From Liolophura sinensis (Eukaryota; Mollusca; Polyplacophora; Chitonida; Chitonidae): DNA of 64,000 nucleotides. The stretch lies in contig NC_088295.1 in the NCBI RefSeq assembly GCF_032854445.1, forward strand, positions 27,701,385-27,765,384, written 5' to 3'. Shown piece after piece: positions 32,698 through 48,455 of this stretch. Position 1 is the stretch's first letter, and the number at the start of each line of letters is the position of its first letter. A program made the translations under genes and the position numbers. The notes under the pieces are model-generated. The model had not been told where the DNA came from. It saw only the letters and a program-made list of their open reading frames with translations, and ran no database searches.

Positions 32698-35320
32698 TTA
32701 TGTGTCTCCGTTCTCCACCACACAATTTGATTTGTGCGTGCTACTGTCTATTAACCCTGAAAAACTCTTGTCGCTGCCATTACAGTCTGTGGTTACCTCC
32801 CCTTTCCTCCAGGAGACTGCACTGCTTACATCCTGTGACACAACAAGTAACAGTTCTGCATCTCTGTTTTGTAGCTGATCGCGCAAATAAGTCTTAAACT
32901 GGTCCTCATAACCTATGACCTCCGGCGAAGGAAGCTTAGAGTCAAAGTTATAGTACGTCTGGTGAATTTCACGAATGGCAATCCAGTGTTTCCTCTTGAT
33001 TGGTAACCTCAATACCCCGAGTTTGAATTCTGTTGGAATGTTGAGGATGAATCCTTTGATGTTTTTGAACACAAGACAGTCAATGTCTCTACAATGAACA
33101 AGGAAAATAAACATATAATATGATAAAAGTTCATAACCTGGAAATACTGAGAGAGTTCTTTCTAAACCTTTATCTATGATTCATTTATTTTTTTGATAGG
33201 TGTTTTGTGGTGTGCTTGAAAATATTTCACTGATACAACGGCGGCCAGCATTATGGTGGGAGGAATCCAGACAGAGCTTCCCACATAGGATAGAAGGGGA
33301 AGTCACCATGAGTTTGACAAACTCACAGTGACCACATAGGCACGAGGTTCCTGGGGTATTGTGCTGCACTGGCGTATTTACCTTTACCTAAAATACCCTT
33401 GTCTATCAACATATGGTGTGTGTATATATATATATGCTAAGCTACCGATATAAAATGTTTGTCAGCATCTTGCCAAAGGGTGATGGGTTACTCTGGACAT
33501 GCTAGTTTTCTCCACCACATCATTAATTAGTGACTGCTCCATATAAAATTCTGTAAGATGTCATTTCATGGTTTGAGCGTTCATTAGGATTTTGTTTCTT
33601 AATTGAGTCCCTTTGTAACAGGCCATAATCATCCCAGTACCGAAAATTGAAGTATTGGATCAGTGAATAACAAAGACTTAAGCATGACCAGACTCATACT
33701 AAAACATGGCAGGTGGGAAACCAGACTGAAACCAATGCTAGAACAAAGACAGAATGAGCATGAGCCCATGAAATTTTACACGTTCCACAGAAAAGACTTA
33801 CTTTCTTTTGTCAAACCAGACAGTTTCACAGTCTTTGGTTTGCAATGCTGCCATGATGACATTGACGTCATAGTTCCCCAAGCCAAACATGCTGCGGTGG
33901 GGATTGATGAAATGGTCTGATGACAACCTGGACAGGAGAAAAAAATACAAACATAAAATTAAAATTTTACCAATAAATCGATAAGACAAAATGAAATGAA
34001 GCTCATGCTGGTTTCCTCTCTGTACATATTTTTAAAATGATTTTAAAGTGAACATAAAGTCTGCCACTATATATAAATAAAGAAAGAATATAGGACACAG
34101 TTATCAAAGAAAAATATGTACAAAATTCTATTACGTTTTGAAAGCCGAGAAGATGAAGTTCAGTATTGGAGATATGGCACTGATGAACAATTCACTCAGA
34201 GTAGCTAAGTTGAAGAAGCCCTTATACAGTATAGCCAATCACTAGCACTGAAAGCATCACATGATCATAGTAGTCATGTAAAAAAAAAAAAAAAACATTG
34301 GCTCTTGATTGTCAGTGTGGTTTCTTACATTGGATAGACAGATTTCGATGAAATAAACTGGATTTTGCAGTTATTTCAAGTGTTAAACTGGTACATTTTG
34401 GAACACACATTTATGAGCAGAGAACTGAGAACAGCTGCTCATGTCAATGTGTACATGATGGGTAGGAGACTGCAGTAACTTGTCAAGGTGAGCTAGCAAG
34501 AAAACTGCTTCTGGAGAATCTTTGCTTAAAGAAAAATATTGTAACTTTGCATCGTTTTTCCTTAGCAAATTCAGACTAATTATGAAAATATCTTCCCAAA
34601 ATCTGAATGAAAAAGTTTGCTATAAATCAGAAGGCCCTGCCATGTTCGGTAAATTCCCTGATGTAGCTACAGCCAGTTAGGCCTAATGCTGACACCCATG
34701 CAGGATGAGGACGAGCAGGACTGCTAAAACACAATGCTTGTGTCCACAAACCTTTAAACATGGAATAGAGCTGTTACTCTTTGGTTGGGTACCAGGTGTT
34801 TTTGTTTGTATTTTCTTACTGTCACACTGTTTAATACCGATGGTACGAGAGAGCTCCTAGGTTGTGTGACATCACTCTAGATAGCTATAACATAGCAAGA
34901 TGGCGTAACCAAATAAGTGAGTTAAATATTTTCAGAACACTTCTGGAATACTACTTTATTAATTAATTCAGATTTAGTGGCTGACTTCATGTTCACTTTA
35001 AGTGTGTTTTACTACTGATTAACCAGAATGAAATACCTCAGTAACATTCAAAATGGTTTTTAGCAATGCGCAGAGACTGTGATACCCTAACATTAACAAC
35101 ATTAATGTTATGTTTGCAGGGTATATTATCTGGTAAATAAATACCTAGTGCAGATGTCATCCAATCCTTTCTTGGAGAAAGCCTTGTTATCCTGAAACAG
35201 GTTATTGAGTGCATGAAGGGCGCATAACTCTTTCACCTGCTTCTCATGATAAAGCTGCTCAGCCTTGTTACTTTCCATTCTTCTACCACCTGGACGGGAC
35301 GTTTCCCGCATCCAGTGCAT
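32698..35320 (-). CDS. JOSD1: Josephin-domain deubiquitinase, three coding exons
   Basis: This is a cysteine protease of the Josephin family that cleaves ubiquitin from substrates. Exons in transcript order are 35320-35145 (coding part), 33927-33802 and 33088-32698, with consensus splice sites and matching phases. [17 protein letters not shown] carries the catalytic Cys, [10 protein letters not shown] the His, and YYNFDSKL the Asp/Asn position. [17 protein letters not shown] is nearly identical to human JOSD1. Two in-frame starts are possible: ATG at 35320 (230 aa; Cys33, His135, Asp149) or at 35278 (216 aa; Cys19, His121, Asp135). The longer form gives an N-terminus closer in length to human JOSD1. 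An acceptor at 35501-35503 suggests this exon starts at 35500 with a 5' UTR. The C-terminal tail after VSWRKGE is longer than in the human protein. Confidence 0.93.
33184..33380 (-). mobile_element. SINE family A, degenerate copy
   Basis: On the plus strand this has TTTGATAGGTGTTTTG, GGCGGCCAGCATTATGGTGG, AACTCACAGTGACC and a worn head TGCTGCACTGGCG, in family A order. It lies in the JOSD1 intron between the second and third coding exons. Confidence 0.75.
34043..35001. mobile_element. TIR element copy 2 (959 bp), inverted relative to copy 1
   Basis: The ends read TTAAAGTGAACATAAAGTC and the complement of TTAAAGTGAACATGAAGTC, an 18 of 19 match. The interior matches the reverse complement of 23200-24192, for example GAGGACGAGCAGGACTGCTA. 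No transposase is seen. It fills most of the JOSD1 intron between the first and second coding exons. Confidence 0.8.
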
Positions 35321-35799
35321 TGGGATACGTCGAAGCTTCAACCACAATCTTGTCTCACGCTTTTGTTTAACATTTAAACAAAATGTTTCCAGAAGTGTTT
35401 CCACAACAATGCTCACTTATCCATCAAGCAGTGTGTTAATACAATGTTCATGGGCAAGCAAATCCTACTGTATGTCCTCTACTCACGCAGATCTCAACAT
35501 CTGAAAAGCAATATGTTAAATCTGTCAGAGCATATGTATCAACAGATAAAGTTCTACCAGGAAGATTTAAAAGATTCTGATTGGTGTTTTTTATCCAAAT
35601 ATACTTATGTAAACTCTTTCCAAACAATGAGTATGCATCACTTTTTTGAATAAATTTTATGTTTTCATATTTTCTTAACGTATGGGAAGTACTACTGGCA
35701 TAATGCAAAATGTCTAAATGTCATCTTTTCTTTAAATTTCTTTAAAGAAATTGATTAGCAATTTGTAATATATTCCAATAAGGTTTTCACTTGGTATTT

Positions 35800-47700: not shown

Positions 47701-48455
47701 GGCATTGGGAAATTTTGTTTTTGATATTAGACTAAATGTTTGTGCAGTGCTAGTAGCTCATCTTTAGTTTGAGTATTGAGAATGGTAGACATTGTAAGAT
47801 ACCTATGCTAAACTATAACTGATGTGTGTATAGGAGGATGAAGTGGTATGGGCACCAATCTGAATGTGTCCTCGTTCATCAGCTGTTCAAAATATTCATT
47901 TGTACCATCAACCGTTGTCATGGGAGATAGTTCTGCTTCGGCCTTGACCAAAGAGTTTTACTGCTCTCAAAGAAAAAAAAATGTTGAAGTTACTTTATTT
48001 ACTGAATTGTAATCTTTTATAGGTATCTTCAAATAAGTCATTCCTTTCGTTATGTTAAAACAGTCCACGTGGGAAGTGTACGTCAAACAGCCACGATACT
48101 TAACATGTCAGAGGAACACTTACGGACGGGAGACAAGGCCATCGTGAGATTCCGCTTCATTAAAAATCCTGAATATTTACGGACAGATATGCGGATGGTG
48201 TTCCGAGAAGGAAGGACAAAAGCTGTCGGAAATGTCACAAAACTGTTCCCTCACATCAGCGCTGTCGCTCAGAACACACGGCAGCAGAGGGCACAGAAAA
48301 AAGCTCAGGACGGAAATCATTGTATTAAACCTCAGAACGAGCCTCAGAAAGCGAGCAAAAAGACGCGTTCCAGATTTATGTATAATAGAGGGCCCCAGCC
48401 TTCAATACATAGTGAGGAGAAAGCAGATGTAGCAAAGTCAGAGACAGTGACATGA
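41734..48455 (+). CDS. GTPBP1: GTP-binding protein 1, complete, ten coding exons
   Basis: This is a translational GTPase of the GTPBP1/GTPBP2 group, related to EF-Tu/eEF1A and linked in vertebrates to exosome-dependent mRNA decay and ribosome rescue. Exons: 41734-41847, 42315-42423, 42920-43100, 43535-43781, 44567-44662, 45016-45254, 45598-45742, 46400-46582, 47336-47471, 48064-48455. They total 1842 nt, 613 aa, all in phase. G1 is GNVDAGKST (140-148), G3 is DLAGHEKY (from 223) and G4 is TKID (279-282). Domain 2 contains [19 protein letters not shown], and [19 protein letters not shown] matches the human protein almost exactly. The N-terminus ([10 protein letters not shown]) and the Lys/Arg-rich C-terminal tail vary more, and the tail is shorter than in human (about 669 aa). 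The start has a good context, ACCATGG. Confidence 0.96.
42835..42890 (+). mobile_element. SINE family A, 3' end fragment
   Basis: GTACGTGGAAAGGTCCGCCG followed by CATAAAACACCAATGAAATAAATAC matches the two ends of the family body, with an internal deletion. It lies in the GTPBP1 intron before exon 3, about 30 bp from the acceptor. Confidence 0.55.

What the first reader, a model, noticed from the sequence alone, without database searches (positions are those of the whole stretch)
32698..48455. Divergent JOSD1-GTPBP1 pair: deep microsynteny with human 22q13.1
JOSD1 (minus) and GTPBP1 (plus) are neighbours in head-to-head orientation here. From memory, human JOSD1 (minus) and GTPBP1 (plus) are also adjacent and divergent on 22q13.1. 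Two unrelated genes kept together between an invertebrate and vertebrates suggest an ancestral bilaterian linkage, perhaps held by a shared promoter or by overlapping roles in ubiquitin and translation quality control.
Basis: partly seen in the sequence, partly recalled or inferred. Interest (0 to 1): 0.7.

Follow-up and report, generated by a model that had tools for sequence, protein, structure and literature searches.

The report
Ancient JOSD–GTPBP1 neighbour pair in chiton
In a chiton (a mollusc), the genes for a ubiquitin-removing enzyme and a ribosome-linked GTPase sit back to back, as their relatives seem to do in mammals, most likely because the arrangement is inherited from a common ancestor and perhaps because they share one promoter; many such old neighbour pairs are known, so this is a modest addition.

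Summary
JOSD (minus, 3 coding exons, 230 aa) and GTPBP1 (plus, 10 exons, 613 aa) are adjacent and divergent, with no Pfam-recognisable gene between them. The genome matches the chiton Liolophura japonica (scaffold_1). Correction: the Josephin gene is the single pre-duplication JOSD, co-orthologous to JOSD1 and JOSD2. GTPBP1 is the orthologue (73% identical to PDB GTPBP1; a less similar GTPBP paralogue lies on C6). In print, cattle CBY1-TOMM22-JOSD1-GTPBP1-SUN2 share one 100-kb bin and a human chr22 list begins JOSD1, GTPBP1, SUN2; human strands are recalled. Neither other window gene found is a 22q13.1 neighbour, but 4 of 6 further 22q13.1 markers lie on the same contig. Chance adjacency is unlikely. 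Start codons are 6.4 kb apart. The strongest CpG-preserved patch between them (36.5-37.6 kb) is flanked by CpG-depleted DNA, suggesting one promoter region for both; a second, smaller CpG-kept patch at 39.4-40.2 kb weakens this. Passive linkage is nearly as likely. Other invertebrates could not be tested. Verdict: a real new member of a known kind (ancient bilaterian microsynteny).

The parts
32698..35320 (-). JOSD, single-domain Josephin deubiquitinase gene, coding exons 35320-35145, 33927-33802, 33088-32698 (alternative ATG at 35278)
   Evidence: Splice model and translation, 230 aa; Pfam Josephin E=9.9e-28; PDB JOSD2 E=2.5e-51, 49.1% identity, 81/165
41734..48455 (+). GTPBP1 gene, 10 coding exons (41734-41847, 42315-42423, 42920-43100, 43535-43781, 44567-44662, 45016-45254, 45598-45742, 46400-46582, 47336-47471, 48064-48455)
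   Evidence: 9 of 9 introns GT-AG, 613 aa, 73.0% identity (381/522) to PDB 9ypg GTPBP1 (search)
36501..37600 (.). Candidate shared (bidirectional) promoter region: strongest CpG-preserved patch between the two genes
   Evidence: CpG o/e 0.71 overall; holds the highest of 802 overlapping 1-kb windows in 6401-47500; 300-bp peak 0.9-1.0 at 36750-37199. 36600-37600 matched only itself in the genome. Transcription start not shown
36929..37182 (.). Cluster of four CRE/ATF-like half-sites TGACG[CT] (36929 +, 37011 -, 37136 -, 37177 -); motif name recalled
   Evidence: 4 of 36 window matches fall here; whole window 36 against 26.07 expected; post hoc, suggestive only
37601..41733 (+). Possible 5' transcribed non-coding stretch (first intron) of GTPBP1, or CpG-poor intergenic DNA
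   Evidence: CpG o/e 0.31 overall; 8 tiles not distinguishable from 58 gene-body tiles (MWU p=0.78), different from 40 outside tiles (p=1e-4); but 39421-40220 is CpG-kept (o/e up to 0.81, 7-9 CpG per 500 bp). No Pfam family
35321..36500 (-). Possible 5' transcribed non-coding stretch of JOSD, or CpG-poor intergenic DNA
   Evidence: CpG o/e 0.31; no Pfam family

Best explanation
[quoted passage not shown] Vertebrates kept the arrangement at the JOSD1 copy and lost it at the JOSD2 copy after genome duplication (inference). In the chiton the two genes are most likely fired from one promoter region at about 36.75-37.5 kb, with non-coding 5' stretches running to the JOSD start codon (35.3 kb) and the GTPBP1 start codon (41.7 kb); this would make separation of the pair costly. 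Shown: gene identity, adjacency, orientation, CpG pattern. Inferred: ancestral state (about 0.93), shared promoter (about 0.5).
For: Gene models and homology. GTPBP1 assignment: in four segments the window protein is 61/67, 56/68, 61/72 and 39/56 identical to the PDB GTPBP1, the C6 paralogue 48/67, 37/70, 44/72 and 23/56. Josephin matches at two loci, this one and C6; the C6 pieces read as ataxin-3 (against the alignments printed). Cattle: CBY1 TOMM22 JOSD1 GTPBP1 SUN2 listed for one 100-kb bin (PMC5471809, passage); human chr22 list JOSD1; GTPBP1; SUN2 (PMC8385949, passage). Four of 6 other 22q13.1 markers on the same contig, 15.8% of the genome: CBY1, SUN, EIF3L, KDELR; not TOMM22 (weak) or NOL12; binomial 0.007. 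CpG patch; only itself matched in the genome. Calibration: CBY1 and ATXN3 loci show the expected rise at or upstream of the N-terminal exon; SNX29-like gene likewise about 1.4 kb upstream of its first exon as recognised by recall. Conserved metazoan microsyntenies are co-expressed in squid (PMC9023564, passages).
Against: Start codons are 6.4 kb apart; divergently paired genes are defined by TSSs under 1 kb apart (PMC2670823, abstract listing). No start-site data. A second CpG-kept patch, 39421-40220, o/e 0.66-0.81 with 7-9 CpGs per 500 bp, lies between the candidate promoter and GTPBP1. CpG is also kept at the GTPBP1 3' end (47601-48400, o/e 0.80) and depleted at 26401-32690 (0.26), where no exon was recognised, so CpG does not track promoters and gene bodies strictly. 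EIF3L shows only a weak bump (0.57) at its 5' end, smaller than bumps inside the gene, and CBY1 has an equal bump (0.79) 8-9 kb downstream. An inverted CCAAT and a CACGTG lie within 24 bp upstream of the GTPBP1 ATG, so GTPBP1 could have its own promoter. Only one invertebrate genome was testable. Orientation in human is recalled.
Confidence: 0.48

Rival explanations
1. Ancestral adjacency kept passively: gene order on this slowly rearranging chromosome has not been broken between the two genes. Each gene has its own promoter (GTPBP1's near 39.4-40.2 kb or just upstream of its ATG), and there is no selective constraint.
For: 4 of 6 22q13.1 markers on the same contig at 5-14 Mb distance show conserved chromosomal linkage. 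Start codons 6.4 kb apart. Second CpG-kept patch at 39421-40220. CCAAT and CACGTG just upstream of the GTPBP1 ATG.
Against: Adjacency kept while the flanking genes differ (SNX29-like and MCT8/10-like here; TOMM22 and SUN2 in cattle). The strongest CpG-kept kilobase lies at one place between the genes.
Confidence: 0.43
2. Genomic-regulatory-block or functional coupling: the pair is held because an enhancer of one gene lies in the other, or because JOSD and GTPBP1 act together in proteostasis or translation quality control.
For: GTPBP1 is described with exosome-linked mRNA decay and the GTPBPs as possible ribosome rescue factors (PMC4342817, passages); JOSD belongs to a deubiquitinase family (PMC10050893, passages).
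Against: No interaction, co-expression or enhancer data were available or found. None of the 8 papers that name both genes has a title on synteny or joint function; two were opened, passages only.
Confidence: 0.05
3. Chance convergence: the two genes became neighbours independently in chiton and vertebrates.
For: Only two genes are shared and only two lineages could be compared.
Against: My estimate: with 28,010 protein-coding genes (PMC11068029) the chance that a given gene's divergent neighbour is one named gene is of order 1e-5 to 1e-4, and about 2 chance adjacencies are expected per genome pair, against 216 and 275 published bilaterian-age microsyntenic blocks in scallop and squid (PMC9023564). 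The surrounding chromosome also shows conserved linkage.
Confidence: 0.03

Closest known systems
Ancient metazoan/bilaterian microsynteny (PMC9023564, passages; PMC8851819, passages)
   Same: Unrelated genes kept close between a mollusc and mammals; such blocks number in the hundreds and tend to be co-expressed
   Different: Only two genes, 6.4 kb ATG to ATG; whether this pair is in the published block lists could not be looked up (supplements closed)
Divergently paired genes / bidirectional promoter pairs (PMC2670823, abstract listing)
   Same: Head-to-head orientation with one candidate promoter patch
   Different: Definition needs TSSs under 1 kb apart; TSSs unknown here
Human/cattle JOSD1-GTPBP1 locus (22q13.1 / BTA5)
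   Same: Same two genes close together; divergent orientation in human recalled
   Different: Flanks differ: SNX29-like and MCT8/10-like in chiton; TOMM22/CBY1 and SUN2 in cattle; chiton JOSD is pre-duplication

Membership tests
Josephin lineage (JOSD) | Josephin domain as the only domain, closer to JOSD than to ataxin-3 | tested here: met
   Pfam Josephin only; PDB JOSD2 2.5e-51 against ataxin-3 1.3e-8
JOSD1 one-to-one orthologue | Descends from JOSD1 after its split from JOSD2 | tested here: not met
   By species position: split dated to the second vertebrate genome duplication, invertebrates have an ancestral JOSD (PMC10050893, passages); this genome shows one JOSD and one ATXN3-type locus. 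No tree was built
GTPBP1 | Closer to GTPBP1 than the genome's other GTPBP paralogue | tested here: met
   73.0% identity to PDB GTPBP1; higher than the C6 paralogue in 4 of 4 compared segments. No GTPBP2 sequence or tree available
Ancient bilaterian microsynteny | Same close linkage in distant bilaterian lineages | tested here: met
   Neighbours in chiton; consecutive in a cattle 100-kb bin list, strict adjacency there being inferred from the list order; other lineages not testable
Ancient bilaterian microsynteny | Same relative orientation | tested here: inconclusive
   Divergent in chiton; human divergence recalled only
Bidirectional promoter pair | Two TSSs in opposite directions less than 1 kb apart | tested here: inconclusive
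   No TSS data; main CpG patch of about 1 kb but a second smaller one at 39.4-40.2 kb; ATGs 6.4 kb apart
Genomic regulatory block with bystander gene | Conserved non-coding enhancers of one gene inside or near the other | not testable with these tools
   No second mollusc genome held

The most novel reading that the evidence does not exclude
A single bidirectional promoter, possibly CRE/ATF-driven, has tied a Josephin deubiquitinase to a ribosome-surveillance GTPase since the bilaterian ancestor, so the two are obligatorily co-expressed and the pair is a stress- or translation-linked regulatory unit that vertebrates preserved only at JOSD1 and lost at JOSD2.
Probability: 0.14. Interest if true: 0.55.

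Novelty: new member of a known kind. Interest (0 to 1): 0.3.

Why it matters
It adds one concrete head-to-head pair to the set of old animal neighbour genes, and it offers a clean test: the pair survived at JOSD1 but, by recall of human positions, not at JOSD2, so one can ask whether promoter sharing, rather than inertia, explains which copy kept its partner. The CpG pattern also gives a promoter prediction from sequence alone in a mollusc that a start-site map can confirm or refute.

Tried and rejected
Idea that all window genes belong to one 16p13/17q25/22q13 paralogon (positions recalled): dropped, because the SLC16 gene is MCT10/MCT8-like. A paper search for that paralogon gave nothing useful. 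Fox-1_C as a further marker gave no hit in the genome nor in the controls, so it is uninformative and was left out of the marker count. POLR2F (PF01192) was asked three times and never answered. Splice donors for 5' UTR exons in 36400-37700: none scores above 5 bits by a generic matrix typed from recall; the 11 modelled donors of the two genes score -0.5 to 7.2, so the scan cannot decide. Rfam and tRNA scans of the window: nothing. Repeat origin of the main CpG patch: not supported, 36600-37600 matched only itself (that search skips very common words). Gene between the pair: none by Pfam. Pfam coverage is partial (11 of 12 searches used): not scanned were one frame of 2001-17000 minus, 1-2000 minus, about 30-35.3 kb plus, about 32-35.3 kb minus outside the JOSD exons, the GTPBP1 introns, and the last 500 bases plus.
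Full report
What is there. The minus-strand gene at 35320-32698 encodes a 230-aa protein whose only Pfam family is Josephin (E=9.9e-28, preliminary exon join). Its best PDB match is JOSD2 (E=2.5e-51), ahead of ataxin-3 (1.3e-8). The plus-strand gene at 41734-48455 encodes a 613-aa GTPase with 9 of 9 introns GT-AG, 73.0% identical (381/522) to the GTPBP1 chain of PDB 9ypg. The 6.4 kb between the two start codons gave no Pfam family in six frames.

Where it comes from. The window is G000:C1:27701385-27765384 of a genome of 609,464,459 bases in 632 contigs. Contig C1 is 96,433,062 bases long. The chiton Liolophura japonica assembly has 632 scaffolds, 609,495,693 bases and a scaffold_1 of exactly 96,433,062 bases (PMC11068029, passages). 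I take the organism as that chiton. Small mismatches exist: the totals differ by about 31 kb, and C6 has 82,489,547 bases against 82,493,220 for scaffold_2.

Orthology. Josephin matches were found at two loci, this one and one on C6; that search goes exon by exon and gives lower bounds (in the window it found only the last JOSD exon). The C6 pieces read as ataxin-3 when set beside the alignments, and downstream ORFs look like ubiquitin-interacting motifs by eye. JOSD1 and JOSD2 split at the second vertebrate genome duplication and invertebrate deuterostomes have a single ancestral JOSD (PMC10050893, passages), so 'JOSD1' here is co-orthologous to both. GTPBP1 and GTPBP2 are an older pair, suggested to predate the eukaryotic ancestor (PMC4342817, passages). 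A second GTPBP locus lies on C6, 37-73% identical to the window protein over six matched pieces; a further 25% match on C8 is a more distant GTPase. In four segments the window protein is 61/67, 56/68, 61/72 and 39/56 identical to the PDB GTPBP1, and the C6 paralogue 48/67, 37/70, 44/72 and 23/56.

Is the shared adjacency more than chance? In print, cattle list CBY1, TOMM22, JOSD1, GTPBP1, SUN2 for one 100-kb bin (PMC5471809, passage), and a human chr22 list begins JOSD1; GTPBP1; SUN2 (PMC8385949, passage). That human JOSD1 is on the minus and GTPBP1 on the plus strand, next to each other, is recalled. With some 28,000 genes, two unrelated gene orders share only about two adjacencies by chance (my estimate), whereas 275 and 216 blocks dating to at least the bilaterian ancestor are reported for squid and scallop (PMC9023564, passages). 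Six other genes of human 22q13.1 were sought in the genome. CBY1, SUN (a second, weaker SUN locus is on C13), EIF3L and KDELR lie on C1, 5 to 14 Mb away. TOMM22 (one weak match on C13 below its cut-off) and NOL12 (C6) do not. Four of 6 on a contig that is 15.8% of the genome has a binomial chance of 0.007. The choice of markers was mine; the 22q13.1 positions of EIF3L and NOL12 are recalled, and SUN and KDELR have paralogues elsewhere in human (recalled). CBY1, KDELR3 and JOSD1 are named together in a human chr22 study (PMC3659060, passages).

How far the synteny goes. Only the pair is shared. Upstream is a plus-strand gene with RUN (11.8-12.4 kb) and PX (24.8 kb) domains, SNX29-like by recall. 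Downstream is a minus-strand transporter, best matched by MCT10 and MCT8. By recall neither is a 22q13.1 gene.

Promoter. The window has a mosaic CpG pattern: CpG is depleted over the SNX29-like gene, JOSD and GTPBP1 (o/e 0.31, 0.37, 0.40) and kept in the right part (0.86). [quoted passage not shown] Between the two genes the main CpG-kept patch is 36.5-37.6 kb (o/e 0.71), holding the highest of 802 overlapping 1-kb windows between 6.4 and 47.5 kb. Its stretch 36600-37600 matched only itself in the genome. The 4 kb from there to the GTPBP1 start codon look overall like gene body (8 against 58 tiles, MWU p=0.78) and not like undepleted DNA (40 tiles, p=1e-4). The simplest reading is that both transcripts start in this patch.

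Results against that reading. A second CpG-kept patch lies at 39421-40220 (o/e 0.66-0.81, 7-9 CpGs per 500 bp). CpG is kept at the GTPBP1 3' end (47601-48400, 0.80), outside the range ranked above, and depleted at 26401-32690 (0.26) where I recognised no exon. Of three other loci used as calibration, CBY1 and ATXN3 fit the rule at the 5' end, but CBY1 has an equal bump downstream, and EIF3L is ambiguous. A CCAAT and a CACGTG lie within 24 bp upstream of the GTPBP1 ATG, and the ATGs are 6.4 kb apart. In the main patch 4 of the window's 36 TGACG[CT] half-sites fall within 254 bp; this is post hoc and partly follows from CpG content.

Literature. A full-text search for both gene names gave 8 papers, none with a title on synteny; two were opened, passages only. 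A search for at least two of JOSD1, synteny, TOMM22 and SUN2 gave 23 papers, 12 listed, none by title on this pair in invertebrates; besides one already read, two of these were opened, passages only. Supplementary block lists could not be opened, so the pair may already be in them.

Verdict. It is a new member of a known kind, with a testable promoter prediction.

Noticed in passing
7829-25000 (+): SNX29-like gene: RUN domain pieces at 11796-11972 and 12248-12358, PX at 24789-24911; gene name and the first exon at 7829 from recall. It converges on JOSD.
   Followed up: partly
55632-60394 (-) and about 87.96-91.6 kb (+) beyond the window (L015): MCT8/MCT10-like SLC16 gene with what looks like a second, oppositely oriented copy about 28 kb further right (ORF reading by eye).
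   Followed up: partly
23195-24125 and 34112-35005: One dispersed element of about 0.9 kb in inverted copies, 79-90% alike in five matched arms, one in the SNX29-like gene region and one inside JOSD intron 1 (pairs I1, I3, I7, I8, I9).
   Followed up: no
4091, 29753, 33185, 35812, 51533, 56580 (+) and others: Dispersed repeat of about 93 nt in six direct copies (D4) and further copies in the other orientation (D6, inverted pairs); similar translations seen by eye in the flanks.
   Followed up: no
8366-8695, 18096-18656, 30392-30816: Tandem arrays of 47-bp x7.0, 95-bp x5.9 and 39-bp x10.9 units.
   Followed up: no
6401-47500 versus 49601-64000: Switch from mostly CpG-depleted to CpG-kept DNA, consistent with mosaic gene-body methylation; the transporter gene lies in the undepleted part.
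   Followed up: partly
39421-40220: Second, AT-rich CpG-kept patch between JOSD and GTPBP1 (o/e 0.66-0.81); could be a promoter of GTPBP1, an enhancer or noise from few CpGs.
   Followed up: partly
window left edge, -332 to 216 (+): ORF that reads like a Tc1/mariner-type transposase (by eye, no search).
   Followed up: no
G000:C1:27641385-27701384: Left flank carries several repeated LDLR/LRP-like exon groups in both orientations (by eye, no search).
   Followed up: no
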